Shown: positions 21,515 to 41,943 of the stretch, one piece after another | Layout: the number at the start of each line of letters is the position of its first letter | Numbering within the stretch: the stretch's first letter is position 1 | The notes under the pieces: model-generated | What the model saw: only the letters and a program-made list of their open reading frames with translations | What the model was told of the DNA's origin: nothing | The model's database searches: none | Origin: Mycolicibacterium litorale | GTDB lineage: Bacteria > Actinomycetota > Actinomycetes > Mycobacteriales > Mycobacteriaceae | NCBI RefSeq assembly: GCF_010731695.1 | Contig: NZ_AP022586.1 | Span: 806,001-870,000, forward strand | Direction of reading: 5' to 3' | DNA: 64,000 nt | Program-made: the position numbers and the translations under genes

Positions 21515-22693
21515 CTAGGGCTGATCCCCATCGCTGTAACATCCGGCAGCGCCGCCCACCTCGTCGAGCACGAGCGTCTCGGTGGTCTCCGCGTAGCCGG
21601 GTTCCGCGTCTGCTCCGGTCTCGGTCATGTATGTGGTGTCGAGGCCAGGGTCGGTCGCGACCTGGTATTCGGCGGGCGTGCCGTCGACCACGATGTCATC
21701 AGCCCCGTCATCGATGAAGATGTTGCTTGACGCATCGGTCGATGACGACGACAGATCGACGCCCAGCGTTTCGCTCTCCACCGCGACCGTCTCCGATGCG
21801 GTCCACCGCTCCACTTCGTTGCCGTCCGCGTCCGTGCCGTATTCATAGGCGATACGCGCTGTGCCACTCACGTGGTCGGCTTCGTCGCCCAGGGTGCCGG
21901 ACACCTCGTCATGCAGGATGATGCGTTCGCCGTCGGGTCCCCAGGTGTACGCGACTCCCTGTTCGGATGCCACGTCGACGACCTCGTCTCCGTCGACCTC
22001 GATGCTCGCTTCGGTGCTGTGCCGAATACCGATCGTGGATTGTCCGTCAACCAAGGAGAAGTCAACGTCGTTGCCGCTCATCACCGAACCTTCGACCGCG
22101 TCGTCGATATCCGCCGACAACCCGCTGCTTGTTCCGGCCGTCGCCTTGAAGCCGTGGTCGCCCAGGTCCTCATATCCGGCGCGATATTCGACACCCACCG
22201 GAACTCCGTCGATGACCGCCTGCGCTCCGTACTGCCCCTGCACCCGGAAACCGTCATCCGTTTCGCTGTACCGACCCTCCCAGGAAATGCCTGCTTCATC
22301 CAGGCCCACCTTGACGTCTGCGGTCAAACCGAAGTGTCCCTCGTCGTCGTTGCCGGCGTGAGCTTTCACGCTTCCGAAGGGGCCCGCTGAGAACGTGGTG
22401 TCGAATGCGCCGTTCTCGTCGACATCGACGTCGACGTGCGGCACCATCGAATAAGCGCTTTCGGCGAGATCGGCGGCAAGTCCGATCGGATCCGCTTCGG
22501 CGCGGTGAGCAAGGTCATCGACGTACTGCTCCGCGGCGTCATAGGTGGCGTCGACCGCTTCCGCGGCCGTGGCGTAGGCGGCTTGCGCCCCCTCCGCCAC
22601 GGCATCGAAGACATCCACGAGGACATCGGAATCGCCTTGGATTCCTCCTGATCCCGGGTCGATGGGCTCCTCGTTGTCGGCGAAGATTCTCAT
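21515..22693 (-). CDS. Acidic beta-rich repeat protein of the iniBAC-like island
   Basis: I do not recognise a named family. This 392-residue, very acidic protein has no signal peptide. The N-terminal part (about 25-75) is Ala-rich and helical (VFDAVAEGAQAAYATAAEAVDATYDAAEQYVDDL). Residues 80-330 are short beta-like strands alternating with Gly/Asp turns (FGLTADVKVGLDEAGISWEGRY, VEYRAGYEDLGDHGFKATAGT). This style resembles the C-terminal region of the 30143-31987 protein and, loosely, the Ala/Gly-rich body of IniB. The start is ATG 22693. It is divergent from the DG-repeat gene across a region carrying the shared palindrome, so probably the same regulon. Confidence 0.65.
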   Translation of the reverse strand: MRIFADNEEPIDPGSGGIQGDSDVLVDVFDAVAEGAQAAYATAAEAVDATYDAAEQYVDDLAHRAEADPIGLAADLAESAYSMVPHVDVDVDENGAFDTTFSAGPFGSVKAHAGNDDEGHFGLTADVKVGLDEAGISWEGRYSETDDGFRVQGQYGAQAVIDGVPVGVEYRAGYEDLGDHGFKATAGTSSGLSADIDDAVEGSVMSGNDVDFSLVDGQSTIGIRHSTEASIEVDGDEVVDVASEQGVAYTWGPDGERIILHDEVSGTLGDEADHVSGTARIAYEYGTDADGNEVERWTASETVAVESETLGVDLSSSSTDASSNIFIDDGADDIVVDGTPAEYQVATDPGLDTTYMTETGADAEPGYAETTETLVLDEVGGAAGCYSDGDQP

Positions 22694-22794
22694 GGCACTA
22701 CTCCCAACTCGGACACTCAGTCCGATTCGCTGCTGCGATTGACGACCGGACACAGCCCGGTTGCACCAGCGTGAGCGGGGGGCGACGCCGTCGG

Positions 22795-22814
22795 TTGAGT
22801 AGCCGACTACTCGA
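22795..22814. promoter_or_regulatory. Palindromic operator (copy 1): GAGTAG-N4-CTACTC
   Basis: The sequence TTGAGTAGCCGACTACTCGA sits midway between the divergent starts at 22693 and 22935. The arms pair as GAGTAG/CTACTC with one mismatch at the outer position. The same palindrome with a different 4-base spacer occurs at 29927-29946 in the other divergent promoter of the island. The LuxR-type regulator encoded between them is the obvious candidate binder (inference). Confidence 0.65.
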
Positions 22815-22845
22815 ACGCGAATTGCTCGGTGTGGCAAGGGGAGAG

Positions 22846-22896
22846 GCTAGGGCTTTCCCCTAGCGCCCGAGTGGCATGCACGGACCTAGCATGGGC
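22846..22896 (+). promoter_or_regulatory. Conserved core promoter (copy 1)
   Basis: GCTAGGG-CTTTC-CCCTAGC (22846-22864) is itself an inverted repeat and is followed by GTGGCATGCACGGACC and a TAGCAT -10-like hexamer (22887-22892). A closely similar stretch lies at 30069-30120 upstream of the decapeptide-repeat gene. It lies about 40-90 bases upstream of ATG 22935. Confidence 0.5.
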
Positions 22897-22934
22897 CTGC
22901 GCCGCAATCAGCACTTCGCCTGCAAGGAAGAGCA

Positions 22935-24476
22935 ATGGCTGTATCCGCAAGTCTGGGAACCGCACCGACCACCGAGGTCGAACACGCCGATGGCTCGACG
23001 ACAACCGTCAGCGTCACACCGACCGGAGAGGTGTATCGAGCGGTTCGCTTCATCGCCGACGACGGTGCAAAGGTGTCGATCGGCTCCGACGGTGCCGGCG
23101 AGGTGACCGAAATCCACACGTACTCTGACGGTCGGGTCTACACGGAGATTACGCACGACGACGGCACCTCGTTCGCGACCGACCATCGACCAGGCAAGGA
23201 CCAGTCCGACGAGACGATCAGCAGGCATCGCGACGGTTCCGTGCACACATCACGTACCGACGTGGAGCACAACGATCTTGCCCAGATCACCACGACGACG
23301 ACTACGCATCCCGGTGGTGTCGACACGTTGGTCGTCACGGCGGTGCACGGCCCTGCCGGCGACCATGTCATTCGCGAATTCGAGGCTGCCGACGGTACTC
23401 GTGAGGTTCGAACGGAGTTTCCCGACGGCCAGTGGCAGGAGATCAGGACCCTCCCCGATGGATCCTCATCGAGCACCACGTTCGTCCTCGATGCCCACGG
23501 CGGTTCGAGCACAATCGAAGTGGATGCCTCGGGTGCGCAAACAGTGGTCACCCAGGAATTCGACCCGGCGACAAACACGACCACCACGACCACCCGATCA
23601 CCCGACGGACACGCCGAAACTGTGCTCGACCGGGCATATGTCAAACCGGACGGCAGCAGGTTCAGCGAGCACGTCGCGGCCGACGGCACCAGAACCACTC
23701 GGCTGGAACGGCTCGACGGATCGAGCGACGAGACGACGCTGCACACCGACGGGACCACCGAGACCGCGCAGCGGGTCCTCTACCCCGACGGGAGTTCGAT
23801 GCATGAAGTGGTGCACGCAGACGGTACGCGGGAGTCGACGTTGATGGTGCCGCGGCCTGACGGGTCCACCGAGACGGTCTTCAACGCATCCGACGGCACC
23901 ACCGTACGGATGCGCCTGGCCGAAGACGGTAGCGTCGACAGGCACATTCACCGGGAGGACGGCTCGTCGGAGCGCACCATCCTGGGCCCGGAAGGAATGG
24001 GCACAAAGACCATCACGGCTGCCGACGGGTCGACGATGGTGCTGGACCAGTGGATCGATCCGGTGCTGACTGTGGACAGATCCCTGGTGCCCGACGATCT
24101 CACCACGACCGGCGCTGTCGACGACGCTCCTTTCGCTGACGACCCGCTGGTCCTCTGTGACCCCGGCGACTTGCCGATCCCGGATGATCTGACCCCCGTC
24201 GTGCTGGACCGTCCGCTCACCTCCGACGGCATCAATGCGGGCCCGGTCGTGAGCGATGCCTGGGAAGGACCGTTCGATGAGGCCCCTGCGCCGCATCCAG
24301 AAGCGACCAATGTGGAGCCGGACTTCAGCGTGGACGTACTCAAGATGTGCGAAGAGCCCATCGAGACGAATGAGATGAGCGACCTCGGCTACGAGCAGCC
24401 CGTGTACGAAACCACTTGCCAGGATGGGCCAGACGGGGCGGCGGTCGACTGCCTCGATCAACCTGTGGTGGGCTGA
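22935..24476 (+). CDS. DG(S/T)-repeat protein of the iniBAC-like island
   Basis: This 513-residue, Thr/Asp/Gly-rich protein has no signal peptide and no membrane span. Residues about 15-370 are roughly 25 irregular beta units of 10-14 residues with the pattern strand, then DG(S/T), then strand (HADGSTTTV, YSDGRVYTE, AADGTREVR, KPDGSRFSE, HTDGTTETA, YPDGSSMHE, HADGTREST, RPDGSTETV). The C-terminal 130 residues are acidic and Pro-rich, probably disordered. The layout resembles a solenoid or beta-hairpin repeat scaffold. It is not a known enzyme. It is followed 35 bases later by a decapeptide-repeat gene. The shared palindrome and core promoter upstream suggest control with the Hsp70-like and dynamin genes. 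Confidence 0.7.
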   Translation: MAVSASLGTAPTTEVEHADGSTTTVSVTPTGEVYRAVRFIADDGAKVSIGSDGAGEVTEIHTYSDGRVYTEITHDDGTSFATDHRPGKDQSDETISRHRDGSVHTSRTDVEHNDLAQITTTTTTHPGGVDTLVVTAVHGPAGDHVIREFEAADGTREVRTEFPDGQWQEIRTLPDGSSSSTTFVLDAHGGSSTIEVDASGAQTVVTQEFDPATNTTTTTTRSPDGHAETVLDRAYVKPDGSRFSEHVAADGTRTTRLERLDGSSDETTLHTDGTTETAQRVLYPDGSSMHEVVHADGTRESTLMVPRPDGSTETVFNASDGTTVRMRLAEDGSVDRHIHREDGSSERTILGPEGMGTKTITAADGSTMVLDQWIDPVLTVDRSLVPDDLTTTGAVDDAPFADDPLVLCDPGDLPIPDDLTPVVLDRPLTSDGINAGPVVSDAWEGPFDEAPAPHPEATNVEPDFSVDVLKMCEEPIETNEMSDLGYEQPVYETTCQDGPDGAAVDCLDQPVVG

Positions 24477-24511
24477 CACGTCACCATCGATGAAGCACGG
24501 AGGTGTGCGAG

Positions 24512-25438
24512 ATGACAGATCCTGCGGGTGTCGGAATCGATCTGAGCGATGCGTCGGCGGCGCGATCGACCTACGACGCGTCGAGCGGACTCACCCGAAC
24601 GCTTGATTCTCATTCTGGCGTCACGCGGCACTACGACCCGCTGACCGGACTGATGAAAACCTTTGACCCCGTTGATGGGAGCCTTACCACGCTGGATACC
24701 GTGACCGGCACGTTGACGATCACCACTCACGACGAGGTGACCGGCGTGACCACGACCATCATTCCTGCCACCGGTGAGACGCGCGTGTACGACCCGGCCA
24801 GTGGCCAGGTCACGCTGACAGACATGGTCCTGGGACGCACCACAATCCACGATCCGGTACTCGGAGAGACGTCCGTCTACGATCACGCCAGCGGTGAATT
24901 GGCGGTCCACAACCAGTACACCGGTGCGACGACGACGTATGACTCTGCCGGCGACGTCACCGCCATGCGGTCGGTATCGCAAGACTATCTCGACACCGAT
25001 CCGGCTCCCGCCGATGTGGACGGCGACTTCCACATGGGCGGCCAGTCGCTGCAGAACGAGCATTCGACTCCTGCGACTTCGGCCTGGCCCGCTATGGACG
25101 GATCTGCCGGCGGATCCGAATCGGAAGACGTTGATGCGCAACCCATGTGGAGGGATGATTTCAACGGGCCGTCAGACGGCGAGCTAACCGTCGATTGGTC
25201 GGACGACGGCTTCCAGTGGCCCGAATCCCACCATGATGCCACCGTGCCCGACGGTACCGAGGTCGCCTTCGACACTGCGATCCCGTTTGCGCCCGACCCA
25301 CCACAGGACGGAGCAGCGGAGGCGCACTTCGATCCGCTCTCCGAATCAGCAGCAGCCGACGACATGTTCGACGAGTACGCGTACGCGGCGCCACCCGACG
25401 ACTTCTCGGTGGACGACCTCCTGGACCCTGGGCGGTAG
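24512..25438 (+). CDS. Decapeptide (YDPxTG) repeat protein, short form
   Basis: This 308-residue protein opens MTDPAGVGIDLSDASAARST and then carries about 12 tandem units of 10-12 residues, consensus x-T-T-x-Y-D-P-x-[TS]-G (VTRHYDPLTG, LMKTFDPVDG, ETRVYDPASG, RTTIHDPVLG, ETSVYDHASG). The remaining 160 residues are acidic, Trp/Met-containing and low-complexity. There is no signal peptide or membrane span. The repeat is the same as in the larger protein at 30143-31987. ATG 24512 is preferred over GTG 24503 because GGAGG at 24499-24503 is then correctly spaced. It forms an operon with the DG-repeat gene. The function is unknown. Confidence 0.7.
   Translation: MTDPAGVGIDLSDASAARSTYDASSGLTRTLDSHSGVTRHYDPLTGLMKTFDPVDGSLTTLDTVTGTLTITTHDEVTGVTTTIIPATGETRVYDPASGQVTLTDMVLGRTTIHDPVLGETSVYDHASGELAVHNQYTGATTTYDSAGDVTAMRSVSQDYLDTDPAPADVDGDFHMGGQSLQNEHSTPATSAWPAMDGSAGGSESEDVDAQPMWRDDFNGPSDGELTVDWSDDGFQWPESHHDATVPDGTEVAFDTAIPFAPDPPQDGAAEAHFDPLSESAAADDMFDEYAYAAPPDDFSVDDLLDPGR
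24587..24952 (+). repeat. Coding decapeptide repeats (about 12 units)
   Basis: These are tandem 30-36 base units encoding the YDPxTG-type decapeptide. They are diverged at DNA level, so this is an old protein repeat rather than a recent DNA expansion. Confidence 0.75.
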
Positions 25439-25476
25439 ACACGAGTGCTGAAGTGCACCCGGCCCGGTGGATCCGG

Positions 25477-27984
25477 CTACCGGTCGTTCCGCTCGAGCGC
25501 GTGCAGACGCGAGATCAACTCGCTGCGTGAATCCGTACCCATCACGCGCTTGATCTTCGCGACGTGGTATTCGACGGTTTTCGGGGAGATGAACAGGCGC
25601 TCACCCACTCCCTTGTACGTCAGCCCCGCGACAAGCAGAGCTGCGACCTCCCGCTGACGATCGCTCAACGTGTGCATATCCGCGGTGACATGTGCGGGGA
25701 CGACGGTCGAGTCGCTGCCGGGTGCCGGTTGTCCGGCGACCCGCGCAAGATGGAGGAGCTCCGCCGACATTCGATTGTCGGCGCACCGGAGGGCGGCTCG
25801 CGAAGCGAGGTTGGCCGCATCCCAGCCGTGCCCGAAGGACTGAAGCCCGGTGACGGCCATAGTAAGTTCAGCCATGTCCAGCTCAGCGTTGAGTGCCCGC
25901 ACCCACGCCCGACCCGCTGCCGCCAGCGCAGCAGCGTACTCACTCTGTTCGGCGGCCGCGCGCAGTGCCCGGGCGTGCCGGGTCACGTCGCTCGGTGAAT
26001 CCGATCGGATGGCGACCGTCAGTCCGTACCAATGCATCGCACACGTCCAGAACGGTGGACCGCCCAAGCTGTCAGTGAGTGCAAAGGCGTCGTCGACGAG
26101 GTGCCGTACCAAGCCGGCCTCTCCCACTCGTGAAGCGCCCGCCCACAACTCGCCGACCGGAAGCAGACTCAGCAGGTCCACCGAGTAGTCGTCGATACTT
26201 TCCCGTGCCTGGGCCAGCGCGATGTGTAGCTGCCCTACATCAGCGCGTCTGCGTGCCAGGCCGACATGGAGAGCATCAACGAAGAAGCGTTCGCGCGAAG
26301 GCAGGTCCCGTCCGCCGACCGCGGCCAGCTCGCAACCGGCCACCTCCAGGTGGCCCTCGAGCATCATCGTCCACGCCATCAAGAGGCGAAGCCGTACACT
26401 GACCGGCGCAGAGTCCGACCCGCTGTCGAGAGCCCGTCGAAGCACCGTACGCGCCTTGCGGAGGTCACCGACGTGCAACGCCGCGATCGCCGTCACTGCT
26501 GCGACGTCATCGGGTGTGACCACTCGAGTGCTTGACCCATCGAGCACCGTCAAAGAGCGGCTGAACAAGTTCAGTGTCGCCGGCCCGGGCTGTCGCAAAG
26601 ACGTCAGTAGTGCCTGTGCGAGCAATCGGTGGCCGCTGACGTCGGCGGTCGGAGGCCTTGTGCCAGGGGACTCTGCCATCGCCGTCGCCGCCTTCGCGTC
26701 ACCGGCACAGACGAGAAGCATTGCGGCGATTGCACCGTCCTCGCCGACCCGTTGCGGACCGAGCCAGGTGTACAGATCCGCCCCTCGCTTGAGCAGTCCC
26801 CGGGCGCACCAGGTACTGGCCGCAACCCGCGCGGCTGTGGTCACATCGGTGGACGTTGAGTCCTCGAGGGCTACCTCGGCCAATCGGAGTGCATCGTCGA
26901 AGCGGCCGATCCGGAAGGCGGCATCGGCCCGTTCGACGAGCAGGTCGCCGTCTGACGGGGCGGCGTCGATCGCCGCGCGGTAGTAGCGCTCCGCCAAACG
27001 AGGTCGACCTCCGACCTGCCGTACCGCCTCCGCCAGTAGTGCTCGGCACAGGTGGGTGTCGCGCACACCGCACTCCGCGAGATTCGCGGCTAACTCGGGG
27101 TCCAGGTGCTTCTCCTCGCCGCGTGCGCGGTAGTAGCGCTCAGCCAGCGCCGCCACCTGCGGGTGACCCAGCGCTCCGGTGACCTCGGCCGCAACTATGC
27201 GCGCCAAGTCGGTACCTGGGTGCAGCAGACCACAGTTGGTGGCCTCGTCGTAGATGGCGCACACCTGTCCGTCACCGAGTTGCAGGACTTCGCCGAGCTT
27301 CACCTCGTCCGGATCGGCGCCGAAGTTGCTGAGCGCGATGACGCGCACGACGTCGCGACCCAATCGAAGCAGCTTGTCGGCGACCGCATCTCGGACGGCT
27401 GCGGTGGCGCGTTGGGCGACGTCGCCGTGCAACCGAGGATTGGCCCGGCGGAGGCACGGCTCGACGAGATAGGACAGCCCGTCGGTGAGTGCTGAGACGG
27501 TGGACGCGAACTCGGCGGATACGGGTGCGCCGAAAAGTGCTCGCGCCGAGGCCGCCACGCCGAGTTCATCCAGGGCCGAGAGGTCCACTGTGCGGCCGAC
27601 TGCCTCGAAGGTCTTCATCAACGCTGCAAGCTCGGGATATTGATACCTCGGTTGAACGGTGATCACGAGGGTGAGTTCCTCGTGATAAGCGAGGTCGGTC
27701 AGCCGGTGCAGATCGGACGGCGGGAGCAGGTGAGCGTCGTCGATCAGCAGTGCGGAGTGGCCCGCAGGATCGAACCGCCGCAGTGAATCGGCGGTCGCCA
27801 CCTGTGCGGAGCGGAGTACGTGCCGGATGGCCGCGACCAAAGCGCTCTTCCCGGTGCCGCCGCCGCCGCGAACCAATACGCGCTCGGCCGCATGCGGACG
27901 TCCGGCAACGGTGCGGTACAGCGCGTAGGCGGGCGCGGCGCCCGCGACGACCGCGGGCACGGCCGCGATGGGCGACGACGTCAT
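25477..27984 (-). CDS. iniR: IniR-like ATPase/LuxR-type transcriptional regulator
   Basis: This 835-residue protein has an N-terminal STAND/AAA ATPase with Walker A GGGGTGKSA at about 40-48 and Walker B SALLIDDAH at about 77-85. A long helical TPR-like middle follows, and a C-terminal LuxR helix-turn-helix (LSDRQREVAALLVAGLTYKGVGERLFISPKTVEYHVAKIKRVMG). Architecture and length match Rv0339c (IniR, about 832 residues), the regulator of the isoniazid-inducible iniBAC operon, reported to respond to trehalose. Start ATG 27984 overlaps the Hsp70-like stop (ATGA). It likely binds the two palindromes at 22.8 and 29.9 kb (inference) and converges on the decapeptide-repeat gene with a 38-base gap. Confidence 0.85.
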   Translation of the reverse strand: MTSSPIAAVPAVVAGAAPAYALYRTVAGRPHAAERVLVRGGGGTGKSALVAAIRHVLRSAQVATADSLRRFDPAGHSALLIDDAHLLPPSDLHRLTDLAYHEELTLVITVQPRYQYPELAALMKTFEAVGRTVDLSALDELGVAASARALFGAPVSAEFASTVSALTDGLSYLVEPCLRRANPRLHGDVAQRATAAVRDAVADKLLRLGRDVVRVIALSNFGADPDEVKLGEVLQLGDGQVCAIYDEATNCGLLHPGTDLARIVAAEVTGALGHPQVAALAERYYRARGEEKHLDPELAANLAECGVRDTHLCRALLAEAVRQVGGRPRLAERYYRAAIDAAPSDGDLLVERADAAFRIGRFDDALRLAEVALEDSTSTDVTTAARVAASTWCARGLLKRGADLYTWLGPQRVGEDGAIAAMLLVCAGDAKAATAMAESPGTRPPTADVSGHRLLAQALLTSLRQPGPATLNLFSRSLTVLDGSSTRVVTPDDVAAVTAIAALHVGDLRKARTVLRRALDSGSDSAPVSVRLRLLMAWTMMLEGHLEVAGCELAAVGGRDLPSRERFFVDALHVGLARRRADVGQLHIALAQARESIDDYSVDLLSLLPVGELWAGASRVGEAGLVRHLVDDAFALTDSLGGPPFWTCAMHWYGLTVAIRSDSPSDVTRHARALRAAAEQSEYAAALAAAGRAWVRALNAELDMAELTMAVTGLQSFGHGWDAANLASRAALRCADNRMSAELLHLARVAGQPAPGSDSTVVPAHVTADMHTLSDRQREVAALLVAGLTYKGVGERLFISPKTVEYHVAKIKRVMGTDSRSELISRLHALERNDR

Positions 27985-29858
27985 GGCACACTGTCCGGTG
28001 AGGGATCGGATGTTGTTGGTTGAGAAATTTCCTGTGGCACAACGGAACTCGTCTGATTGTTTGTCTCCTGCGGAGACGGCGGCGTGGTGGTCGGTGGGCT
28101 GCTCGTGGTACTGGAGCTCGGCGGCGTCGTCGTCAGGCACACGCCGTCCACCACCTCACCCGGCGGCGGGCACTCGATCACCGGCGGTTGGCATACCCCA
28201 TCGATGAGCTCGTTCGGCGGTTCGCACACCGGTGGCGTCACGCAGACGCCATCGACGATCTGACTGGGCGGTTCACACGGCGCTGCGATCGGGACGCACG
28301 TTCCGTTCTCGGCTTTGGTGCCCGACGGGCACTGCTTCGGTGTAGCGGTCACGCCATCGCCGCCTGAGGTCACCTCCGAGTTCTGAGTGGTGGTCGTGAT
28401 GGTCGTCGTGGGCGGTGTCGTCGTTGTCGACGTAATGGTGTTCGACGTGTTCTCCGCAGGGCCCACGAACATCGTGGCGAGCAAGCCCACGAGGAAGAAC
28501 GCTGCGACCGCGGTGGTGATGAGCAGGGGGATCGACTTGCGGCTACTGCGGTTGCGCGGACGTGTGGTGTGCGTCGACGCGGGTTGACGTTCTGAGGTCC
28601 TGAAGGGTGGTGGCGGCGGCGGGAATGAGCCACTTGCTGCGCCTGTGGGACCCGGGTTCGGTCGAGGCCGAACCTGAGGCGCGGGCGTACCGGCGGTTCC
28701 TGAGGGATCGAGCCGCTCGATCACAGGACCTTGCGGACGCGTGAGCGGCGGATGCGCGTGCTGCCGGTTGGCCACAGGTGGCATCTCGGGTGGTGGTGTC
28801 GGCGGTGGCGATGCCGCCCGCAGCAGTGGCGGCTGCGCCGACATCGCGCCGAGCACCGATGTGAGTGCTGGATCCTGGTCTCTCAGTATCGGTACCCGGA
28901 ATCGTGACGACAGGAATTCCGCGACCAGAGGGATCGCCCCGCCACCGCCCGACAGTACGATCGCCGACAGCGAACGTCGATCGATACCGTTGACCCTCAG
29001 CAGCTCCTCGACCAATTCGGCGCTGTGTTCGATCGGCTGACGGATGAGTTCCTGCAGCTCTGAACGGACCAGTCGAATCCCGTCAGCGAAACCGGCAAGG
29101 TCCACGTCGATGACCGTGGCCGTCTCCGTCGACAACGTCTCCTTGGCGATGCGGCACTGGTCTCGCAGATCGCCGAGTTGGCGCACCACCCCGCTGTCAT
29201 CCAGATCGAGGTCGGCGGCCGATTCCTCGACCAGCGCCAGTACGTGCCGCAGGATCGCGTAATCCGCTTGCGCGACCCCGAAGTCGGTGTTGCGCACGGT
29301 GGGGCCGATCGGTGCCAGCGTGCGCGCATCGGCCAGGGACAAGCTCAGCCCGTTGCCGCCAAGGTCGTAGACGGCCAAGGGCCCGCCACTGGGAACGCCG
29401 CGCATCTGCCGCGTGCGCGCCAGGACGGCCAATATCTCAGGCACCAGTTTGGCGTGGCCAAGGCCAGCCCTCCGCAGTGCCGACCCAAACGCGTTGACAG
29501 CATTGGAGTCCCAGTGACTGGGGTGGCAGATCGCGATGTCCGGCCTACCCTCGACTGCCCCAGAGGAGTACCGCACGAGGTACTCGATTGCGAGGGCCAC
29601 CAAGTCTGCCCCGCGACGCGGCGTCCCATCGGAGGCGACGACTTCGACCGGGTCATCGACCCGGTCCACGAAACCTGCGACCTCAACGTCGGCGGGCACA
29701 CCGAACACCCCCGGCGCGCGCAGTTCGGGCCCTTGTCCGGACCGCCAGACGAGCACCGCCTGCCGGCGTACCGCGTTCACTGGCTGAGACTGCGCCGCTG
29801 ACGTATCGGTGACTGCTGCGAAGATCTCCGACCCGACCTTCATGCTCAACGACGCCAT
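27981..29858 (-). CDS. Membrane-anchored Hsp70-like protein with extracytoplasmic Cys/Pro-rich tail
   Basis: This 625-residue protein has an N-terminal actin/Hsp70-type nucleotide domain (about 1-350), with phosphate-2 motif VYDLGGNGLSLSLAD and adenosine motif AIVLSGGGGAIPLVAEFL. The usual phosphate-1 DLGTT motif is not evident. The Hsp70 substrate-binding domain is replaced by a Pro-rich linker and a single membrane span (IPLLITTAVAAFFLVGLLATMF). A Thr/Ser/Pro-rich tail follows with repeats of the form C-x-P-P-x5-8-G-x-C. So the ATPase is cytoplasmic and the Cys-rich part outside. It is translationally coupled to iniR and divergent from the repeat-iniBAC operon. Similar Hsp70-like genes accompany IniA-type dynamins in other actinobacteria (recalled, not checked). 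Confidence 0.8.
   Translation of the reverse strand: MASLSMKVGSEIFAAVTDTSAAQSQPVNAVRRQAVLVWRSGQGPELRAPGVFGVPADVEVAGFVDRVDDPVEVVASDGTPRRGADLVALAIEYLVRYSSGAVEGRPDIAICHPSHWDSNAVNAFGSALRRAGLGHAKLVPEILAVLARTRQMRGVPSGGPLAVYDLGGNGLSLSLADARTLAPIGPTVRNTDFGVAQADYAILRHVLALVEESAADLDLDDSGVVRQLGDLRDQCRIAKETLSTETATVIDVDLAGFADGIRLVRSELQELIRQPIEHSAELVEELLRVNGIDRRSLSAIVLSGGGGAIPLVAEFLSSRFRVPILRDQDPALTSVLGAMSAQPPLLRAASPPPTPPPEMPPVANRQHAHPPLTRPQGPVIERLDPSGTAGTPAPQVRPRPNPGPTGAASGSFPPPPPPFRTSERQPASTHTTRPRNRSSRKSIPLLITTAVAAFFLVGLLATMFVGPAENTSNTITSTTTTPPTTTITTTTQNSEVTSGGDGVTATPKQCPSGTKAENGTCVPIAAPCEPPSQIVDGVCVTPPVCEPPNELIDGVCQPPVIECPPPGEVVDGVCLTTTPPSSSTTSSPPTTTPPSPQETNNQTSSVVPQEISQPTTSDPSPDSVP
28134..28334 (-). repeat. 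Cys-rich CxPP...GxC repeats in Hsp70-like tail (4 units)
   Basis: Four units of about 16-19 residues encode CPSGTKAENGTC, CEPPSQIVDGVC, CEPPNELIDGVC and CPPPGEVVDGVC, each beginning and ending in Cys, so four intramolecular disulfides are plausible outside the membrane. Flanks are Thr/Ser/Pro-rich stalks. Confidence 0.8.
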
Positions 29859-29926
29859 GCCCCTACCCCCTGCCGGGTGTCCCAAGTGCTGATGCGCCCA
29901 TTGAAGGCCAGGGTGGCTGGGACTCA

Positions 29927-29946
29927 TCGAGTAGTGGACTACTCGA
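29927..29946. promoter_or_regulatory. Palindromic operator (copy 2): perfect 8+8 bp inverted repeat
   Basis: TCGAGTAGTGGACTACTCGA is a perfect inverted repeat (8-base arms, 4-base spacer) between the Hsp70-like/iniR operon and the repeat-iniBAC operon. Core GAGTAG-N4-CTACTC is identical to the copy at 22795-22814. Confidence 0.7.
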
Positions 29947-30068
29947 AATTCCCCAACAACGCACGGCAGGACCTAGGCGACCTCCAAGGGCCTATAGGGC
30001 GGGACTGCGGTCAAGACCGGAGCGGGCGCGCCGCCGCGGCGGCTGTGCGCCCGTCAGACGAGGGGGCC

Positions 30069-30120
30069 GCTAGGGCTTTTTCCTCGTCCCCTTGCGTGGA
30101 TGCGCGACCCACCATGACCT
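30069..30120 (+). promoter_or_regulatory. Conserved core promoter (copy 2)
   Basis: GCTAGGGCTTTTTCCT followed by GTGGATGCGCGACC and CCATGACC aligns with 22846-22896 over about 50 bases. It lies directly upstream of the AAGGAGGAGAGG ribosome site (30124-30135) of the decapeptide-repeat gene. Confidence 0.5.
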
Positions 30121-30142
30121 CACAAGGAGGAGAGGACCCGTC

Positions 30143-31987
30143 ATGCCGAGCAGCGAATCACCCACGGCGACCCCGAGCGCCGAGCCGACCACGACGCCCG
30201 CGAATGATGCGACGGCGCCACCGGAGGTCACACCTGACCCGGTGGCCACTGATGCCCAGCCCGTCGAGCCCGCCGCAGGCGAGGCAACCGATACCGCCCA
30301 GGGAACCACTACCGATGCCGCCGATCACGAGGGAACGGCAGTACTACCCGACGATCCGATGCCGACCTGGCAGTCGGAAACGGAACCCGACACCGGGGTC
30401 ACCACCCACACCAACCGGGAAACCGGTGAGACCGAGACTTTCGATCCGGCGACGGGTGAGACAACCGCGTACGACCCGGCGACCGGCACCACGACCGTCA
30501 CGTCCACTGATTCGGTGTCGGGCGTCGTCACCACTGTCGATGACTCGGGACTGCGTACGTCCATCGACAATTCGACGGGGATCACGACCACCTACGATCC
30601 AGCGACGAACGCCACGACGGTGTCGTACACCGACGCCGTCACAGGGGTCACCACCACCACCGATCCCGCCACGGGTTTCCGTACCACGAGTGATCCGGCG
30701 ACCGGTGAGACAACCACTCATGACCCGCGGACGGGAATCGACACCACGATCGATGACGACACAGGCATCCGCACCACTTACGACCCGAACACCGGCGTGA
30801 CGACGACTTACGACGCGGCCACGGGCGCTGTGACTCTGTCGACCACCGATGCCGCAACAGGACTCGTGACCACTGTCGATGCGGTGACCGGTATCCGCAC
30901 CACGGTCGACCCCGCGACAAATGAGACCTCGACGTACGATCCGTCGACTGGGCACACGCTCACGACCACCACGGACTCGGAGACGGGCACGGTGACCACG
31001 GTCAACGACGTGACGGGCGAACAGACCATCGCCGCTACGGATCCCGAGACCGGAATTCAGACAGTGGTGAACCTCGACACCGGCGTCACGGTGACGACCG
31101 ACCCCGCCAACGACCTCGTCACGACCTTCGACCCGGCAACGGGTGAAACGACAGCCGTCGCCGTCGAGGGCCTCACGGCGGCCGGCGACGCCAGCGTTAC
31201 CGTCGGCCACGTGACCACGGATTCCTACTACGATCCGGAAACCGGGGCGGCCGGTGTCTCCATGGAGGGACACCTCCTGCATGGAAGGGTCGAAGGCGAA
31301 GTCGGTCTGGGTGGGGTCGGGACGGCTTACGGTGCCGCGGAAGCCGTTGTGGGCGAGGTAAAGGCACACGCCGCATGGGATCCGGAGACGGGCGCTTCCG
31401 CGTCAGCCTCAGCCGTCAGCGCGCGAGTCAACGCCGAGGCCGGCATCGATACGGTGCTGGGAGGTGCAGGGGTAGCTGCGGAGGCAGAGGGGCCGGGGGC
31501 CTCAGCGTCGGCGTCGATCGGCGACACGACCGGCTTCTCCGTCGGAGCCTCGGTGGGAGAGGTGGGTGTCGGAGTGGCGACCGACATCGCCGGCCTGGAT
31601 CTCGAGGTGGGTGCGGAAGTAGGGCTCAAGGCCGAGCTGGGCGTCGAGTTCGGGGACAGTACCCACATCGACTTACCTTTGCTTTCGGTCGATGTGCCGA
31701 CGCCCGTCGTCGGGGTCGCGCTCGGAGCTGCGATGGACCTCGTCACCGACCCGGTGGGGACCGTCACCGATGCCGCACAGGACGTCTATGCCTTCGGGAG
31801 CGACGTCGTCGACGTAGTCGGCGATGCGGGCGGCGCCGTGATCGACGTGGGCGGCGCAGTCGGGGGAGTGGCCGAGGATGCGATCGGCGCCGTAGCGACC
31901 GTCGTCGAGGATGCGGGCGGTGCAGCTATCAGTGTGGTCGAGGACGTCGGCGGCGCGATCGGCGGCGTCCTCGACGACATCTTCTGA
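30143..31987 (+). CDS. Large decapeptide-repeat protein with IniB-like Ala/Gly/Val-rich C-terminus
   Basis: This 614-residue protein is in three parts. Residues 1-75 are disordered (Thr/Pro/Ala/Glu). Residues about 75-342 form some 25 tandem decapeptides of consensus x-T-T-x-Y-D-P-A-T-G. The C-terminal 260 residues are Ala/Gly/Val/Asp-rich (AEVGLKAELGVEFGDS, GGAVIDVGGAVGGVAEDAIG) and recall the low-complexity body of IniB. There is no signal peptide. A very strong ribosome site precedes ATG 30143. It is the first gene of the operon that continues with the IniB-like small protein (5 bases later), IniA-like and IniC-like GTPases. I know no named family for the repeat part; a structural or envelope scaffold role is speculation. 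Confidence 0.7.
   Translation: MPSSESPTATPSAEPTTTPANDATAPPEVTPDPVATDAQPVEPAAGEATDTAQGTTTDAADHEGTAVLPDDPMPTWQSETEPDTGVTTHTNRETGETETFDPATGETTAYDPATGTTTVTSTDSVSGVVTTVDDSGLRTSIDNSTGITTTYDPATNATTVSYTDAVTGVTTTTDPATGFRTTSDPATGETTTHDPRTGIDTTIDDDTGIRTTYDPNTGVTTTYDAATGAVTLSTTDAATGLVTTVDAVTGIRTTVDPATNETSTYDPSTGHTLTTTTDSETGTVTTVNDVTGEQTIAATDPETGIQTVVNLDTGVTVTTDPANDLVTTFDPATGETTAVAVEGLTAAGDASVTVGHVTTDSYYDPETGAAGVSMEGHLLHGRVEGEVGLGGVGTAYGAAEAVVGEVKAHAAWDPETGASASASAVSARVNAEAGIDTVLGGAGVAAEAEGPGASASASIGDTTGFSVGASVGEVGVGVATDIAGLDLEVGAEVGLKAELGVEFGDSTHIDLPLLSVDVPTPVVGVALGAAMDLVTDPVGTVTDAAQDVYAFGSDVVDVVGDAGGAVIDVGGAVGGVAEDAIGAVATVVEDAGGAAISVVEDVGGAIGGVLDDIF
30366..31170 (+). repeat. Coding decapeptide repeats (about 25 units)
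   Basis: Tandem 30-base units (occasionally 36) encode variants such as ETTAYDPATG, ITTTYDPATN, FRTTSDPATG, ETTTHDPRTG, VTTTYDAATG and LVTTFDPATG. DNA identity between units is partial, so this is coding repeat rather than CRISPR or satellite. Confidence 0.85.
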
Positions 31988-31992
31988 CGCGG

Positions 31993-32370
31993 ATGACGAC
32001 CATCGGTCGCGAGCTGAGCAATTTCCTCAGCCGGCTGCTCGGCGATGAGGACGCCGCGCAGCGCTACCTCCTCGACCCGGAGGCCGCGCTGGCTGATGCC
32101 GGGCTGTCAGCCGTGACGGCGTCCGAAATCATCGCGGCAACAGAAGCTTTCGAGGAGAGTATCCGCCGGACTCATGGCGACGAGAATGGCGAGCGATCAC
32201 CGAATCGACACCCGCGGGTGGCAACCACATCACCAGGCAGCGGCGACACGATCCGAAACCTGTTGCTCCACAAGTACACCAGCGGCAACGCCTACCACAA
32301 CATCCTGTCCGAAGGCGGCCTCAGCGATGAGTTCGGGCCTTCAGACCATGAGCGAAGGGCCAGTTCATGA
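31993..32370 (+). CDS. IniB N-terminal-domain small protein
   Basis: This 125-residue protein begins MTTIGRELSNFLSRLLGDED, continuing AAQRYLLDPEAALADAGLSAVTASEI. This resembles the conserved IniB N-terminal domain (short helical segment, then a partially conserved DAA-x-FL-xxP-xxAL-xxAGL pattern, also seen in some Hsp70/dynamin-associated mycobacterial proteins). Unlike IniB it lacks the long Gly/Ala-rich body; that part may have been separated into the upstream repeat protein. The C-terminal 55 residues are polar. It starts 5 bases after the repeat gene and overlaps the IniA-like start by 4 bases (ATGA), so it keeps the iniB-iniA-iniC order. Confidence 0.7.
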   Translation: MTTIGRELSNFLSRLLGDEDAAQRYLLDPEAALADAGLSAVTASEIIAATEAFEESIRRTHGDENGERSPNRHPRVATTSPGSGDTIRNLLLHKYTSGNAYHNILSEGGLSDEFGPSDHERRASS

Positions 32371-34493
32371 ACGAGCACAGCGAGCCGGCGGAGCCGGTAA
32401 CTGCTACCCCCCTTGATCCGAACGAGGTCGCGTCGCGTGCCGCCGCAGCGCAGGCTATCGCTCGTCGGGCCGCGGCCGCCCACCATGCTGCTGTCCAAGC
32501 GCGGGCGACCAAGGCCCCACGTCCAGCCGACGCCACGTCCACGCCTGCGCCGGCGGCCGTGTCGAGCGCGCCGGCGTCGTCACCAGTCGGAGCCGGCCGA
32601 CCAAAACCGCCTCCGACTGTGCCCGCCGCACCCAAACCGGTCAGCGAAGCGGTCAGTCGCCATATGACCGAGGCGCGTGCGGCACTCCCGGCGATGATGA
32701 AGCATCTGTGCGAGCTCGCCGAATCGGCCCGTCGGGAGGACCTCATTAGGAGCCTGGAAGCCACAAAACGCCGTTCGGCAGAGACGGCCATTCGCGTCTC
32801 ATTCGTCGGCTTGCGTCGAAAAGGTAAGAGCCATCTGATCAATTCGTTGATCACTTCCGACGTGTGTGCGGTCGGTGAAGCCGGCGGCACCAAGGTGGTC
32901 ACGGTCATACGGCATGCCGAGGTACCAAGCGCCCGACTGCTTGTCGAGCAGCCGGGTGAAGCAGAGCCGAGGACATTGCCCCTGCCCCTCACCGAATTGA
33001 GTTCCGACCTCGCCGCATCCAGCTATGCCGACGGCCGGACTGTCATCGCGGCTGACATCGGAGTGAAGAGTTCCATCCTCGCCGCGAACCTGGCGCTCAC
33101 AGATACGCCGGGTTTCGGGGGACGCGGACAGCCGCACTCCGTCCATGTTCTCAACGAGGTCGCCGCATCCGATGCCGCAGTATTCGTCACCGACGCCAGT
33201 CAGGAGTTCACGCAGCCCGAGCTCCGCTTCCTGCGCAATGTGCGCGAACTCTGTCCGACCACCGTGATCGCGATGACGAAAACAGACCTCTACCCCGACT
33301 GGCGACGCATCGTCGATGCGGACGAGAGTCACCTGGCGCGAAGTGGACTGGAATGCAGGATCATTCCGCTGTCGTCCACCTTGAGGGGACACGCCGTTCG
33401 GCTCGGAGACAAGAGCTTGAACTCAGAGTCCGGCTTCCCGGAGCTGATGCAGTTCCTCCGAACCGGGGTGCTGGCGGACGCATCCACACGGCGGATCGCC
33501 CGGGTCATCTCGGATTTCGACACCATCGCCCAGCATCTGACACTGCCCTTGGAGGCCGAGCTCAACGCCATGCGCGATCCCGAGTTCCGTGAGCGCATGA
33601 CGAGCGAACTCAAGTCGCGTAAGGAACTCTCCGATTCGAGAGCGAAGACCGCATCCTTGTGGCAGCAGACACTCGCCGACGGTATCGCCGACCTCACCGC
33701 CGAGGTGGACCACGACCTGAAGCACCGAATGCGCCTGATAGGCAAAGAAGCTGAAGTATTGATCAACGAATCGGATCCGGACAAGAAATGGCCGCAGCTC
33801 ACCGATTGGGTGCACGAACAGGTGGGCAACGCCGTCGCGGACAACTTCGTATGGGCATTCGAGTCGGCCCAGGCCCTCGCGGAAAAAGTCGCCACCTCAT
33901 TCGCCGAGGACGGTGAGCGCCTGGACCTCCCTGCGCTGGACGCGATCTGCGGCGGCGTAGTGATCGATCCCGAACTGACCGTGGGTCGGCTGAGCGCATC
34001 GAAGGCCTCCACCCTGCAGAAAGTCCTGGTGGCGGTTCGTGGTGGATACAGCGGCTCGATGATGGTGGGAATGGGCACCCAGATGGCTTTCGGCATGGCC
34101 AGCATGAACCCAATCGCGCTCGGCGCCGGAGTACTGCTCGGCGGCCAATCCTATCGAGAGGACCGCAACAACCGACTCACGCGCCGGCGCGCAGAGGCCC
34201 AGGCCAACGTCCGCAAGTACATCGATGAGATCTCCTTCCACGTCGGCAAGTTGTCGCGAGACCGGCTCCGTAACGTACAGCGCATCCTGCGTGATCATTT
34301 CCGATCGATCGCCGAGCAGGAGATTGCCTCGTTGCAAGAGTCGGTCAAGGCGGCGCACGATGCGGCGAATCTTGAACTCGGTGAACGGGAGAAGAAGGCC
34401 GCCGCCGCCGAGAAGAAACTTGCGGTACTCAAGAAGTGCCGCGAACAGGCCAGCCGGCTTCGAGTCGCCGGTGTCGTGCCGGCAAGCCGATGA
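32367..34493 (+). CDS. iniA: Dynamin-like GTPase, IniA-type
   Basis: This 708-residue protein has an Ala/Pro-rich disordered head (about 1-100), then a dynamin-type GTPase: P-loop GLRRKGKSHL near 147-156, DTPGFGGRG near 246, and TKTD near 304. A helical middle follows, with a hydrophobic Met/Gly-rich patch near 560-590 (GYSGSMMVGMGTQMAFGMASMNPIALGAGVLLGG) that would insert in membrane, then a C-terminal coiled coil (about 650-700). IniA of M. tuberculosis is a membrane-fission dynamin induced by cell-wall inhibitors. The protein is longer than IniA (about 640) mainly because of the head. It overlaps both neighbours by 4 bases. Confidence 0.85.
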   Translation: MNEHSEPAEPVTATPLDPNEVASRAAAAQAIARRAAAAHHAAVQARATKAPRPADATSTPAPAAVSSAPASSPVGAGRPKPPPTVPAAPKPVSEAVSRHMTEARAALPAMMKHLCELAESARREDLIRSLEATKRRSAETAIRVSFVGLRRKGKSHLINSLITSDVCAVGEAGGTKVVTVIRHAEVPSARLLVEQPGEAEPRTLPLPLTELSSDLAASSYADGRTVIAADIGVKSSILAANLALTDTPGFGGRGQPHSVHVLNEVAASDAAVFVTDASQEFTQPELRFLRNVRELCPTTVIAMTKTDLYPDWRRIVDADESHLARSGLECRIIPLSSTLRGHAVRLGDKSLNSESGFPELMQFLRTGVLADASTRRIARVISDFDTIAQHLTLPLEAELNAMRDPEFRERMTSELKSRKELSDSRAKTASLWQQTLADGIADLTAEVDHDLKHRMRLIGKEAEVLINESDPDKKWPQLTDWVHEQVGNAVADNFVWAFESAQALAEKVATSFAEDGERLDLPALDAICGGVVIDPELTVGRLSASKASTLQKVLVAVRGGYSGSMMVGMGTQMAFGMASMNPIALGAGVLLGGQSYREDRNNRLTRRRAEAQANVRKYIDEISFHVGKLSRDRLRNVQRILRDHFRSIAEQEIASLQESVKAAHDAANLELGEREKKAAAAEKKLAVLKKCREQASRLRVAGVVPASR

Positions 34494-35989
34494 CAACGGC
34501 CGCGCCGATCGCCCGGCTGGAGCGGGTCATCGCCGACGCTCGGCAGATCTACGCCGGTCACCGCGAACTCGTCGAACGGCTGGATGCGTGCGCGGTTCGT
34601 CTCGAACAGCCGTTGCGCATCGCGGTCGCCGGGGCCATCAAGGCAGGCAAGTCGACGCTGCTCAATGCTCTCGTGGGCGAAGACATCGCCCCTACCGACG
34701 CGACAGAGTGCACTCGCGTGGTCACCTGGTTCCGCCACGGAGCCAAGCCGGCGGTCACCGCGACGGACGGACGCGGACACGCGACAGATATACCGGTTCG
34801 TAGGCGCGGCGGCGGGCTCACGTTCGACCTGGGACAACTGACCGCCCGCGACGTCGACCGTATCGACGTGGAGTGGCCGACCGCCCGGCTGGTGCAGACC
34901 ACGCTGATCGACACTCCGGGCACCACGTCCCTCTCGACAGAGGTATCCGCCCGCACGCTGGATCTGCTGATCCCCGACGAAGGGAACTCCGCCGCCGACG
35001 CAGTGATCTACCTGTTCCGGTCTCTCGACGAGTCCGATCTCGACTTTCTGAGGCAGATCAGCGGGAATGTCGCCGGAGGAGCCGGACCCCTCGGCGTGAT
35101 CGGAGTGGTTTCACGAGCAGACGAGCTCGGCGTCGGCCGCGTCGACGCCATGCACTCCGCACGTCAGATCGCCAAACAATTCACGCGCGAACTCGAGTTG
35201 ACCGGCTTGTGTCAGACTGCGGTGCCGGTGGCCGGGTTGGTGGCCTTCACGGCGAAGACGTTGCGTCAGCACGAGTACAACGATCTCCGCGAGCTGTCGG
35301 CTGTCGCGCCCGACCAACTAGAACTGGCTCTGCTGTCCGCCGACCGCTTCGTCCGGACCGAGACGCTGCCCACCGACTGCGAGGCTCGCGCGCAGCTCAT
35401 TCGTCGGCTCGGCCCGTTCGGTATCCGGATCGCGCTGACGTGCCTACGGGCCGGCGCCCCTGATTGCCAGACGCTCGTCGACGACCTCCTGTACCGCAGC
35501 GGGGTTACCGAACTGGAGCACGTCATCGATGTGCACTTCGGGCAGCGGGCCGACGATCTGAAGGCGCACAACGCGGCTCGGACTCTCAAAGACATGTTCG
35601 CCGCCCATCCAGCGACTGCGGCCGCCCCCTTGGTCAAGGCGGTTGATGAGCTCGTTGCGAATGTGCACGGCTTCCAGGAGTTGCGGCTGCTCGCCAAACT
35701 CCGGTCCACGCCTACGACACTTCGGGACGTGGAACTCACCGATATTCGGCGGATCCTGGGCAGCTATGGAACCGAGCCTGCCCAACGCCTCGACATCGAT
35801 GCCTTCGCGGTGACGGGCGTCGGGATGGACCATGCCCTCGGCGAGGTCAACCGTTGGCGCGCCAAGGCGCGCCACCCCATGACCGATCAGTTCACGGCAG
35901 GCGCCTGCATGGTCGCCGCGCGCAGTGCCGAGCATGTCTTGGCCCGACTCCGGGACAGCGCAGCGGTCGGCCGCGCGTCAGGCATGTGA
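34490..35989 (+). CDS. iniC: Dynamin-like GTPase, IniC-type
   Basis: This 499-residue protein is close to the length of IniC (493). The P-loop GAIKAGKSTLLNAL lies near 45-58, followed by the G2-region threonine in DATECTRVV, DTPGTTSL near 140-147 and G4-like SRADEL near 206. There is no membrane-inserting hydrophobic patch as clear as in the IniA-like partner. The start ATG 34490 overlaps the IniA-like stop (ATGA), so the two GTPases are probably made in fixed ratio and act together. The 3' end overlaps the convergent DUF21 gene by 12 bases, marking the right edge of the island. Confidence 0.85.
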   Translation: MTTAAPIARLERVIADARQIYAGHRELVERLDACAVRLEQPLRIAVAGAIKAGKSTLLNALVGEDIAPTDATECTRVVTWFRHGAKPAVTATDGRGHATDIPVRRRGGGLTFDLGQLTARDVDRIDVEWPTARLVQTTLIDTPGTTSLSTEVSARTLDLLIPDEGNSAADAVIYLFRSLDESDLDFLRQISGNVAGGAGPLGVIGVVSRADELGVGRVDAMHSARQIAKQFTRELELTGLCQTAVPVAGLVAFTAKTLRQHEYNDLRELSAVAPDQLELALLSADRFVRTETLPTDCEARAQLIRRLGPFGIRIALTCLRAGAPDCQTLVDDLLYRSGVTELEHVIDVHFGQRADDLKAHNAARTLKDMFAAHPATAAAPLVKAVDELVANVHGFQELRLLAKLRSTPTTLRDVELTDIRRILGSYGTEPAQRLDIDAFAVTGVGMDHALGEVNRWRAKARHPMTDQFTAGACMVAARSAEHVLARLRDSAAVGRASGM

Positions 35990-41852: not shown

Positions 41853-41943
41853 CCACGGACGGCCGCACATGCCCTAACCGGCCTATATTTGCGCTCGCGG
41901 TGAGCAAAACTCCGCGCAGGCCGTCGGAGGCGCGTCTGGGACG

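What the first reader, a model, noticed from the sequence alone, without database searches (positions are those of the whole stretch)
21515..35989. An enlarged iniBAC-type locus with Hsp70-like, IniR-like and repeat proteins inserted next to cysA
Gene order iniB-like, iniA-like, iniC-like (31993-35989) with an IniR-like regulator is the drug-induced iniBAC module of M. tuberculosis, but here it carries extra partners: a membrane Hsp70-like ATPase coupled to iniR, two decapeptide-repeat proteins, a DG-repeat protein and an acidic beta-rich protein. All nine genes lie between cysA and the DUF21 pair, where M. tuberculosis has different genes. Seen: gene content, overlaps and shared operators. 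Known: IniA is a membrane-remodelling dynamin; IniR regulates iniBAC. Inferred: one stress-responsive envelope machine, possibly using the repeat proteins as scaffold and the Hsp70-like protein as a sensor or assembly factor.
Basis: partly seen in the sequence, partly recalled or inferred. Interest (0 to 1): 0.88.

Follow-up and report, generated by a model that had tools for sequence, protein, structure and literature searches.

The report
A second, divergent iniBAC-type gene island
This bacterium carries, besides a normal iniBAC envelope-stress locus, a second and very divergent copy on what looks like an inserted 14.5-kb island with its own Hsp70-like partner, regulator, promoter signals and flat beta-sheet repeat proteins, which matters because comparing the two exposes the conserved core and a likely DNA switch of a drug-response system known mainly from tuberculosis research.

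Summary
Nine genes (21515-35989) lie between cysA and a DUF21 pair; profiles and the solved IniA structure confirm IniB-N, IniA- and IniC-type dynamins, an IniR-like regulator and an Hsp70-like ATPase. Two readings change. (1) Hsp70 with IniR, divergent from iniB-iniA-iniC, is no enlargement: Hsp70 lies directly before IniR in 53 of 60 loci I fetched across the order. (2) This is a second locus: a canonical iniBAC lies at 3.85 Mb, and the window copy is a separate lineage (IniR 38% identical; no orthologue in 395 other sampled genomes of the genus; three in unnamed jgi/lgn/ena sources). Island genes have low GC3, and one relative has cysA and DUF21 joined. New: both divergent promoter regions share a palindrome and a second element; two repeat proteins (g3, g6) model as single-layer beta-sheets; and canonical loci carry a directly repeated CCCCTAAYG box (100 forward, 1 reverse, 51 of 53 loci), a strong candidate IniR site, absent from the island's promoters. 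Most likely: a separately switched, membrane-tethered stress regulator driving a membrane-remodelling dynamin pair plus sheet-protein scaffold. Function is inferred.

The parts
21515..22693 (-). g1: 392-aa acidic protein (22% D/E), no family, no relative found
22797..22812 (.). palindrome GAGTAG-N4-CTACTC in the g1|g2 divergent promoter region
22846..22861 (+). shared element GCTAGGGCTTTNNCCT toward g2; overlaps possible diverged boxes CCCTAG at 22847(-) and 22858(+)
22935..24476 (+). g2: 513-aa DG-repeat protein; weak, sub-threshold sequence match to Tcp10_C and to an engineered OspA sheet
24512..25438 (+). g3: 308-aa decapeptide-repeat protein; residues 18-145 predicted beta-sheet; relatives P0021-P0023
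25477..27984 (-). IniR-like ATPase-type regulator with TPR and LuxR HTH, 835 aa
27981..29858 (-). Hsp70-like nucleotide-binding domain, Pro-rich linker, TM 443-461, tail with four C-x10-C units; ATGA overlap with the IniR-like gene
29929..29944 (.). palindrome GAGTAG-N4-CTACTC in the Hsp70|g6 divergent promoter region
30069..30084 (+). shared element GCTAGGGCTTTNNCCT toward g6 (CCCTAG at 30070 on the - strand)
30143..31987 (+). g6: 614-aa decapeptide-repeat protein (26 predicted strands, 76-340) with Gly/Ala/Val-rich C-terminal part
31993..32370 (+). IniB N-terminal-domain protein, 125 aa, without a long repeat body
32367..34493 (+). IniA-like dynamin GTPase, 708 aa
34490..35989 (+). IniC-like dynamin GTPase, 499 aa

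Best explanation
A second, anciently diverged iniBAC-type envelope-stress module on a probably inserted 14.5-kb island. Shown from sequence: a membrane-anchored Hsp70-type nucleotide-binding protein overlaps an IniR/MalT-like ATPase-regulator gene by ATGA; divergently, IniB-N, IniA and IniC genes overlap by four bases each; the two divergent promoter regions that serve all predicted transcription units share two sequence elements. Inferred: the extracytoplasmic tail of the Hsp70-like protein senses the envelope and through its cytosolic actin-fold domain holds or releases the IniR-like regulator, which then activates both promoter regions; IniA/IniC remodel membrane; g3 and g6 (perhaps g2) form flat, solvent-exposed beta-sheets that act as scaffold or docking surfaces, taking the place of the long repeat body that canonical IniB carries. 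Because its promoters lack the box found at canonical iniBAC, the island is most likely switched separately from the canonical locus.
For: Families and long IniA match. Second canonical locus in the same genome. IniR tree: window with P0002-P0004 is a 100% clade, apart from the Mycobacterium clade (100) that holds the own canonical copy. IniA+IniC tree: window outside the canonical Mycobacterium clade (that clade 100; window as its sister 98, long branch); identity to the own copy 42% (IniA) and 49% (IniC). Insertion: GC3 0.738-0.796 in the nine genes against 0.88-0.93 in 23 hand-chosen flanking genes (U=0, p=8e-6), and with every mechanically picked ORF of the window 8 island against 37 others, U=3, p=3e-8; relative G014 has cysA and DUF21 joined. 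Hsp70 directly upstream of IniR in 53 of 60 loci; TM plus long tail in 25 of 25 own-family loci examined and in the window. Periplasmic sensing for canonical iniBAC: PMC5760070, passage. Shared elements: the palindrome has 3 exact places in the whole genome, two here; the second element has exact matches only here. Sheet models.
Against: No expression or binding data. g1 has no relative; g6 as query returned three g3 relatives and one long protein that looks unrelated, no g6 relative; g2 was not searched that way. That P0002 and P0023 lie on one contig is inferred from equal contig length and number. The N-terminal phosphate motif of the Hsp70-like protein is degenerate, so ATP hydrolysis is doubtful (sequence). 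The third exact palindrome of the genome lies between convergent gene ends, so it is not only a promoter element. Controls (pattern read backwards, up to 1 mismatch): palindrome 3 places against 6; second element 6 hits against 3. The IniR equivalog cut-off is not reached. One relative only (of three with a close DUF21 gene opened) shows the joined site; G019 has two other genes there and in G012 the pair is elsewhere, so loss in G014 is not excluded. Eleven of the 37 other ORFs have GC3 under 0.88 and one (94 aa) 0.76. The best box-profile hit of the window is outside the island, at 41868.
Confidence: 0.6

Rival explanations
1. Recent duplication of the organism's own iniBAC locus that has picked up neighbouring repeat genes.
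For: Same core gene order and orientation as the own canonical locus L088.
Against: Only 38% (IniR), 42% (IniA), 49% (IniC) identity to the own copy; separate clade with unnamed-source proteins; low GC3 of the island genes.
Confidence: 0.04
2. A composite island: a real second iniBAC core (Hsp70, IniR, IniB-N, IniA, IniC) beside unrelated repeat-protein genes (g1-g3, perhaps g6) that came along and do another job, for example surface or contact functions.
For: g1, g2, g3, g6 have no match in 60 core loci; g1 has no relative found.
Against: Both promoter regions share two elements; g3 and g6 share the repeat; g3 relatives probably share a contig with an IniR relative; similar GC3 for all nine.
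Confidence: 0.22
3. An anti-phage or similar defence island that uses a dynamin pair, inserted in a sulfate-uptake neighbourhood.
For: Island-like and rare; PADLOC models LeoBC (3.7e-14, IniA-like) and LeoA (1.8e-8, IniC-like) match the two dynamins.
Against: These matches may be general dynamin similarity; the only other PADLOC hit among the nine is a CARF3 model on the LuxR region of the IniR-like protein (9.1e-5); no tRNA in the window and no edge repeat over 8 bases; the core is widespread across the order.
Confidence: 0.1

Closest known systems
iniBAC operon with regulator IniR (Rv0339c/MMAR_0612), PMC5760070
   Same: IniB-N domain, IniA and IniC dynamins in one operon, IniR-type regulator next to it
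   Different: Separate, rare lineage; IniB domain stands alone as a 125-aa protein beside a repeat protein; extra g1-g3; lacks the CCCCTAAYG boxes; own palindrome and element
M. smegmatis-type iniR with a dnaK-like neighbour (PMC5760070, section 10)
   Same: Hsp70-like gene beside iniR
   Different: The paper calls it downstream, here and in 53 of 60 loci it is upstream; window tail has four C-x10-C units; degenerate N-terminal phosphate motif
IniA of M. smegmatis, PDB 6j72/6j73
   Same: Homologous over 110-700 (515.7 bits)
   Different: Window protein has about 100 extra N-terminal residues
TCP10/G-box domain of CPAP/SAS-4 (4ld3, 4mpz, 4bxr) and engineered OspA single-layer sheet
   Same: Predicted one-strand-per-repeat sheet with tight Asp/Gly turns
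   Different: No significant sequence relation; no common origin claimed
MalT of E. coli (directly repeated asymmetric MalT boxes: recalled)
   Same: IniR has a MalT-like domain plan (PMC5760070) and its candidate boxes are asymmetric direct repeats
   Different: Different box sequence; island promoters carry a palindrome instead

Membership tests
iniBAC locus | IniB N-terminal domain at or above curated cut-off | tested here: met
   NF038175 41.3 bits, cut-off 40; narrow
iniBAC locus | IniA-like dynamin homologous over its length to IniA | tested here: met
   6j72, 515.7 bits, query 110-700; Dynamin_N 40.3 bits, cut-off 27
iniBAC locus | IniC-like second dynamin downstream of iniA | tested here: met
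   Dynamin_N 50.5 bits; 49% identity to own canonical IniC
iniBAC locus | iniR divergent to the iniBAC operon, as in canonical loci | tested here: met
   gene map; canonical loci
IniR equivalog (NF038181) | score at or above curated cut-off 750 bits | tested here: not met
   508.5 bits over 22-830; so IniR-like, not IniR in the strict sense
canonical IniR regulon | CCCCTAAYG direct-repeat boxes in the promoter region (candidate site found here) | tested here: not met
   no CCCTAA in either island promoter region; only CCCTAG
iniBAC locus | induction by isoniazid, ethambutol or trehalose | not testable with these tools
   needs RNA measurements
Hsp70 | Hsp70 nucleotide-binding domain | tested here: met
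   PF00012 52.2 bits, cut-off 20.6, residues 108-323
DnaK chaperone | DnaK equivalog score / substrate-binding domain | tested here: not met
   prok_dnaK 40.8 bits against 822.55, match ends at residue 338
TCP10_C (PF07202) | Pfam gathering score for g2 | tested here: not met
   21.9 bits against 36
single-layer beta-sheet (TCP10/OspA) fold for g3 | structural match clearly above unrelated rows | tested here: inconclusive

The most novel reading that the evidence does not exclude
The IniR family is a one-component regulator held at the membrane by a catalytically degenerate Hsp70 that has become a transmembrane envelope sensor; on this island the sensor's cytosolic proline-rich linker (it has a PRxxPxP sequence, PRPNPGP at residue 398) is read by bacterial TCP10-like single-layer sheet proteins g2, g3 or g6, which build a scaffold that recruits the IniA/IniC membrane-fission machine. 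It would be a bacterial counterpart, by convergence, of the CPAP-STIL sheet/proline-motif pair of centriole assembly.
Probability: 0.1. Interest if true: 0.88.

Novelty: new variant of a known kind. Interest (0 to 1): 0.62.

Why it matters
IniBAC is the classic marker of cell-wall drug action in mycobacteria, yet how IniR is controlled and which bases it binds were not given in the paper passages I saw. The comparison forced by this locus gives three directly testable statements: the Hsp70-like neighbour is a core part of the system in most loci of the order; a directly repeated CCCCTAAYG box is the likely IniR site; and the system can exist twice in one cell, with a private switch and a stand-alone IniB domain beside flat beta-sheet proteins.

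Tried and rejected
Led nowhere: named genome contigs for the IniR lineage (two pattern-based scans, no relative); plasmids (only distant, best Nocardia farcinica 34.9%); phages for IniA (none); PHROGs for the repeat proteins and IniB-N (two weak hits over 0.04); sequence search of the solved structures with the g3 profile (none); a paper search for CCCCTAA with iniB returned 85 papers; the 20 listed are not about mycobacterial iniB as far as titles and abstract starts show, mostly drug names ending in -inib; iniBAC with 'direct repeat' gave none; 'IniB N-terminal domain' gave none.

Considered and rejected: recent duplicate of the own locus (trees); the palindrome as the general IniR site (no exact copy in 60 canonical loci; one-mismatch copies in L101, at the start of an iniB-type ORF, and elsewhere in L121 and L126); tRNA- or repeat-bounded integration (no tRNA in the window, longest shared edge repeat 8 bases). 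The PRxxPxP match in the Hsp70-like linker is weak evidence: 29 of 102 linker residues are Pro, and 3 of 53 other Hsp70-like proteins match the pattern.

Limits: the genome surveys are samples (396 of the genus, 397 of the order, own genome included); the 60 loci were chosen by hand from those matches to cover genera; protein searches scored only the 8000 or so candidates sharing most words; the g6 model is from a single sequence; the box profile was built from sites chosen by the string CCCTAA; the binomial p rests on a cut of 12 chosen after seeing the list, and one of those three sites (29857) begins two bases before the counted region; the 23 flanking genes were chosen by hand, so repeats the test with all picked ORFs. 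Fisher p is not corrected for kinship.
Full report
WHAT IS THERE. The nine ORFs exist. Order: g1(-) 21515-22693; then divergently g2(+) 22935-24476 and g3(+) 24512-25438; IniR-like(-) 25477-27984 and Hsp70-like(-) 27981-29858, overlapping by ATGA; then divergently g6(+) 30143-31987, IniB-N 31993-32370, IniA-like 32367-34493, IniC-like 34490-35989, the last three overlapping by four bases each. Family searches and the solved IniA (515.7 bits over 110-700) confirm the core claim that 32367-34493 and 34490-35989 are dynamin-family proteins. The IniR model scores 508.5 bits against a curated cut-off of 750, so the regulator is IniR-like and not an IniR equivalog.

A SECOND LOCUS ON AN ISLAND. The window lies in a 5.58-Mb single-contig genome at C1:806001-870000; a second IniR is at 3,853,335-3,855,791, 38% identical. 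That locus (L088) is of the canonical mycobacterial kind: Hsp70-IniR divergent to a 181-aa IniB-N protein, IniB, IniA, IniC and another Hsp70-like gene. I call the genus Mycobacterium because the nearest named IniR proteins are mycobacterial; the genome itself is unnamed. Among 396 genomes of the genus (own included) 264 have an IniR-like match at E<=1e-60, but the best one outside this genome has 417 bits against 1802 for the window itself; among 397 genomes of the order 171 match at E<=1e-30, none outside closer than 416 bits. Three proteins at 53-54% identity come from jgi, lgn and ena sources without a species name (P0002-P0004). In a 72-row tree the window and these three form one clade (100), inside the family but apart from the Mycobacterium clade (100) that contains the own canonical copy; how the family's lineages join is unresolved. 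In the 55-row IniA+IniC tree the canonical Mycobacterium rows form a clade (100) and the window is its sister (98; long branch, placement less sure). So an ancient side lineage, gained from outside or kept by few. The nine genes have GC3 of 0.738-0.796 against 0.88-0.93 in 23 hand-chosen flanking genes (p=8e-6); with all mechanically picked ORFs, 8 of the island against 37 others, p=3e-8, though 11 others are under 0.88 and a 94-aa ORF has 0.76. In relative G014 cysA and the DUF21 gene are neighbours: window 21462 matches L165:9356 and window 35989 matches L165:9375. In G019 two other ORFs lie between them, and in G012 the DUF21 pair is elsewhere. So about 14.5 kb was inserted here or lost in G014; low GC3 favours insertion. 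No tRNA in the window, no shared edge repeat over 8 bases.

THE CORE IS ORDER-WIDE. I fetched 60 stretches of up to 20 kb around IniR homologues, chosen to cover genera, and compared the nine proteins: IniA and IniC matches in 55 of 60, Hsp70 in 51 of 60 by single-sequence search, IniB-N in 35, g1, g2, g3, g6 in none at E<=1e-3 (none by BLAST at 1e-2 either). With profiles, an Hsp70-like gene lies directly upstream of IniR on the same strand in 53 of 60. The seven others: L103 and L116 end at contig edges; L115 has an Hsp70 ORF that overlaps too far for the rule; L129, L133, L138 and L143 have none adjacent, the first three with dynamin genes pointing toward IniR. In a wider set with 1.5-kb flanks, seven same-genus loci with 852-1470 bases of room show none (L024-L029, L087). 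In the own family all 25 adjacent Hsp70-like proteins have a TM after the nucleotide-binding domain and a tail of at least 127 residues; in family f15 0 of 5 have a TM; in f14 7 of 19 have a TM but none a tail of 40 or more; f16 has both in 3 of 4. The window protein has the TM at 443-461 and a tail with eight Cys in four C-x10-C units; no other tail of that set has more than two Cys. [quoted passage not shown] smegmatis and concludes that the sensing system for trehalose is in the periplasm. A membrane-anchored Hsp70-type partner with an outside tail fits that; that it is the sensor is my inference.

A CANDIDATE IniR BOX. In the 330 bases upstream of the Hsp70 domain start in each of the 53 loci, CCCTAA occurs 100 times toward iniB and once the other way, in 51 of 53 loci and 28 of 30 genera; 200 dinucleotide shuffles give 3.2 forward on average, 11 at most. 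Copies are direct repeats: mostly 15 and 17-18 bases apart in the own family, 8 or 24 in f14, 24 and 33 in f15 (pattern CCCTAA or CCCTAG). The consensus around the fixed string is close to A-N-CCCCTAAYG. L106 has the variant CCCCTATCGG; L119 has none. In the own genome the tandem form occurs only at the canonical iniB promoter region. In 61 genomes it occurs 90 times against 44 for the reversed pattern; 68 of the 90 lie within 5 kb of an IniR match on the same contig. Of 36 same-genus genomes, 26 of 26 with IniR (E<=1e-50) have the tandem box and 1 of 10 without (G005, 84% complete; Fisher p=1e-7, kinship not corrected). Of the 22 boxes away from IniR I opened six: four lie 0-150 bases upstream of the longest ORF of an unlinked iniB-type gene on the same strand (L171-L174, E 5e-18 to 4e-17); L175 lies inside a long ORF and L176 has no IniB. 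PMC5760070 reports a strong IniR ChIP peak upstream of iniBAC (section 11) and iniBAC as the only IniR target by RNA-seq (abstract); the parts I saw give no site. My searches for a printed site found none in this open-licence library; HpoR binds a different palindrome in the iniBAC promoter (PMC13413693, passages). That IniR itself binds the box is inferred.

THE ISLAND'S OWN SIGNALS. Neither divergent promoter region of the island has CCCTAA. They share GAGTAGNNNNCTACTC (22797, 29929) and GCTAGGGCTTTNNCCT (22846, 30069; 73 and 58 bases before g2 and g6). In the whole genome the palindrome has three exact places, the third between convergent gene ends; with one mismatch 6 places against 3 for the reversed control. 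The second element has exact matches only here, though with one mismatch the reversed control gives 6 hits against 3. The element contains CCCTAG, which may be a diverged box; 3 of the 12 best box-profile hits of the 64 kb fall in or at the edge of these 525 bases (p=1e-4, cut chosen afterwards), but the best hit of all is elsewhere, at 41868. I therefore expect separate control of the island.

MECHANISM AND VERDICT. Most likely a separately switched envelope-stress module: membrane Hsp70-like partner and IniR-like ATPase sense and switch, the dynamin pair remodels membrane, sheet proteins scaffold. Shown: anatomy, families, second lineage, island character, shared elements. Inferred: sensing, binding, scaffold, co-induction. 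New variant of a known kind.

Noticed in passing
Hsp70|iniB intergenic regions of L088-L147: Directly repeated CCCCTAAYG boxes, 100 forward against 1 reverse, in 51 of 53 loci of the order: candidate IniR binding site.
   Followed up: yes
L171, L172, L173, L174: Unlinked iniB-type genes with a tandem box just upstream: the box seems to travel with iniB.
   Followed up: partly
L088:1-1344, L091, L092, L093, L099, L100; L095:11594-13036, L097:11297-12985: Further Hsp70-like genes after iniC or after iniR in several mycobacterial loci; in G011 and G033 a tandem box lies just past the 3' end of iniR, before such a gene.
   Followed up: no
L109:8762-19900, L110:4682-8746, L113:2686-6735: Very long IniB proteins (about 1,350 to over 3,700 residues) of repeats; Hsp70-like tails of related genera end in similar Gly-rich repeats.
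   Followed up: no
31993-32370: The IniB N-domain weakly resembles RiPP leader families (Frankia_peptide, NHLP clan; below cut-offs).
   Followed up: no
G000:C1:1809678-1809693 (L164:9679-9694): Third exact copy of the palindrome, between convergent gene ends, so perhaps a terminator-like hairpin.
   Followed up: partly
41868-41881: Best hit of the box profile in the window (GCCCTAACC), outside the island and shortly before the ORF at 41944.
   Followed up: no
43243-63998: Large multidomain biosynthetic genes downstream, mycobactin-like by position (recalled, not searched).
   Followed up: no
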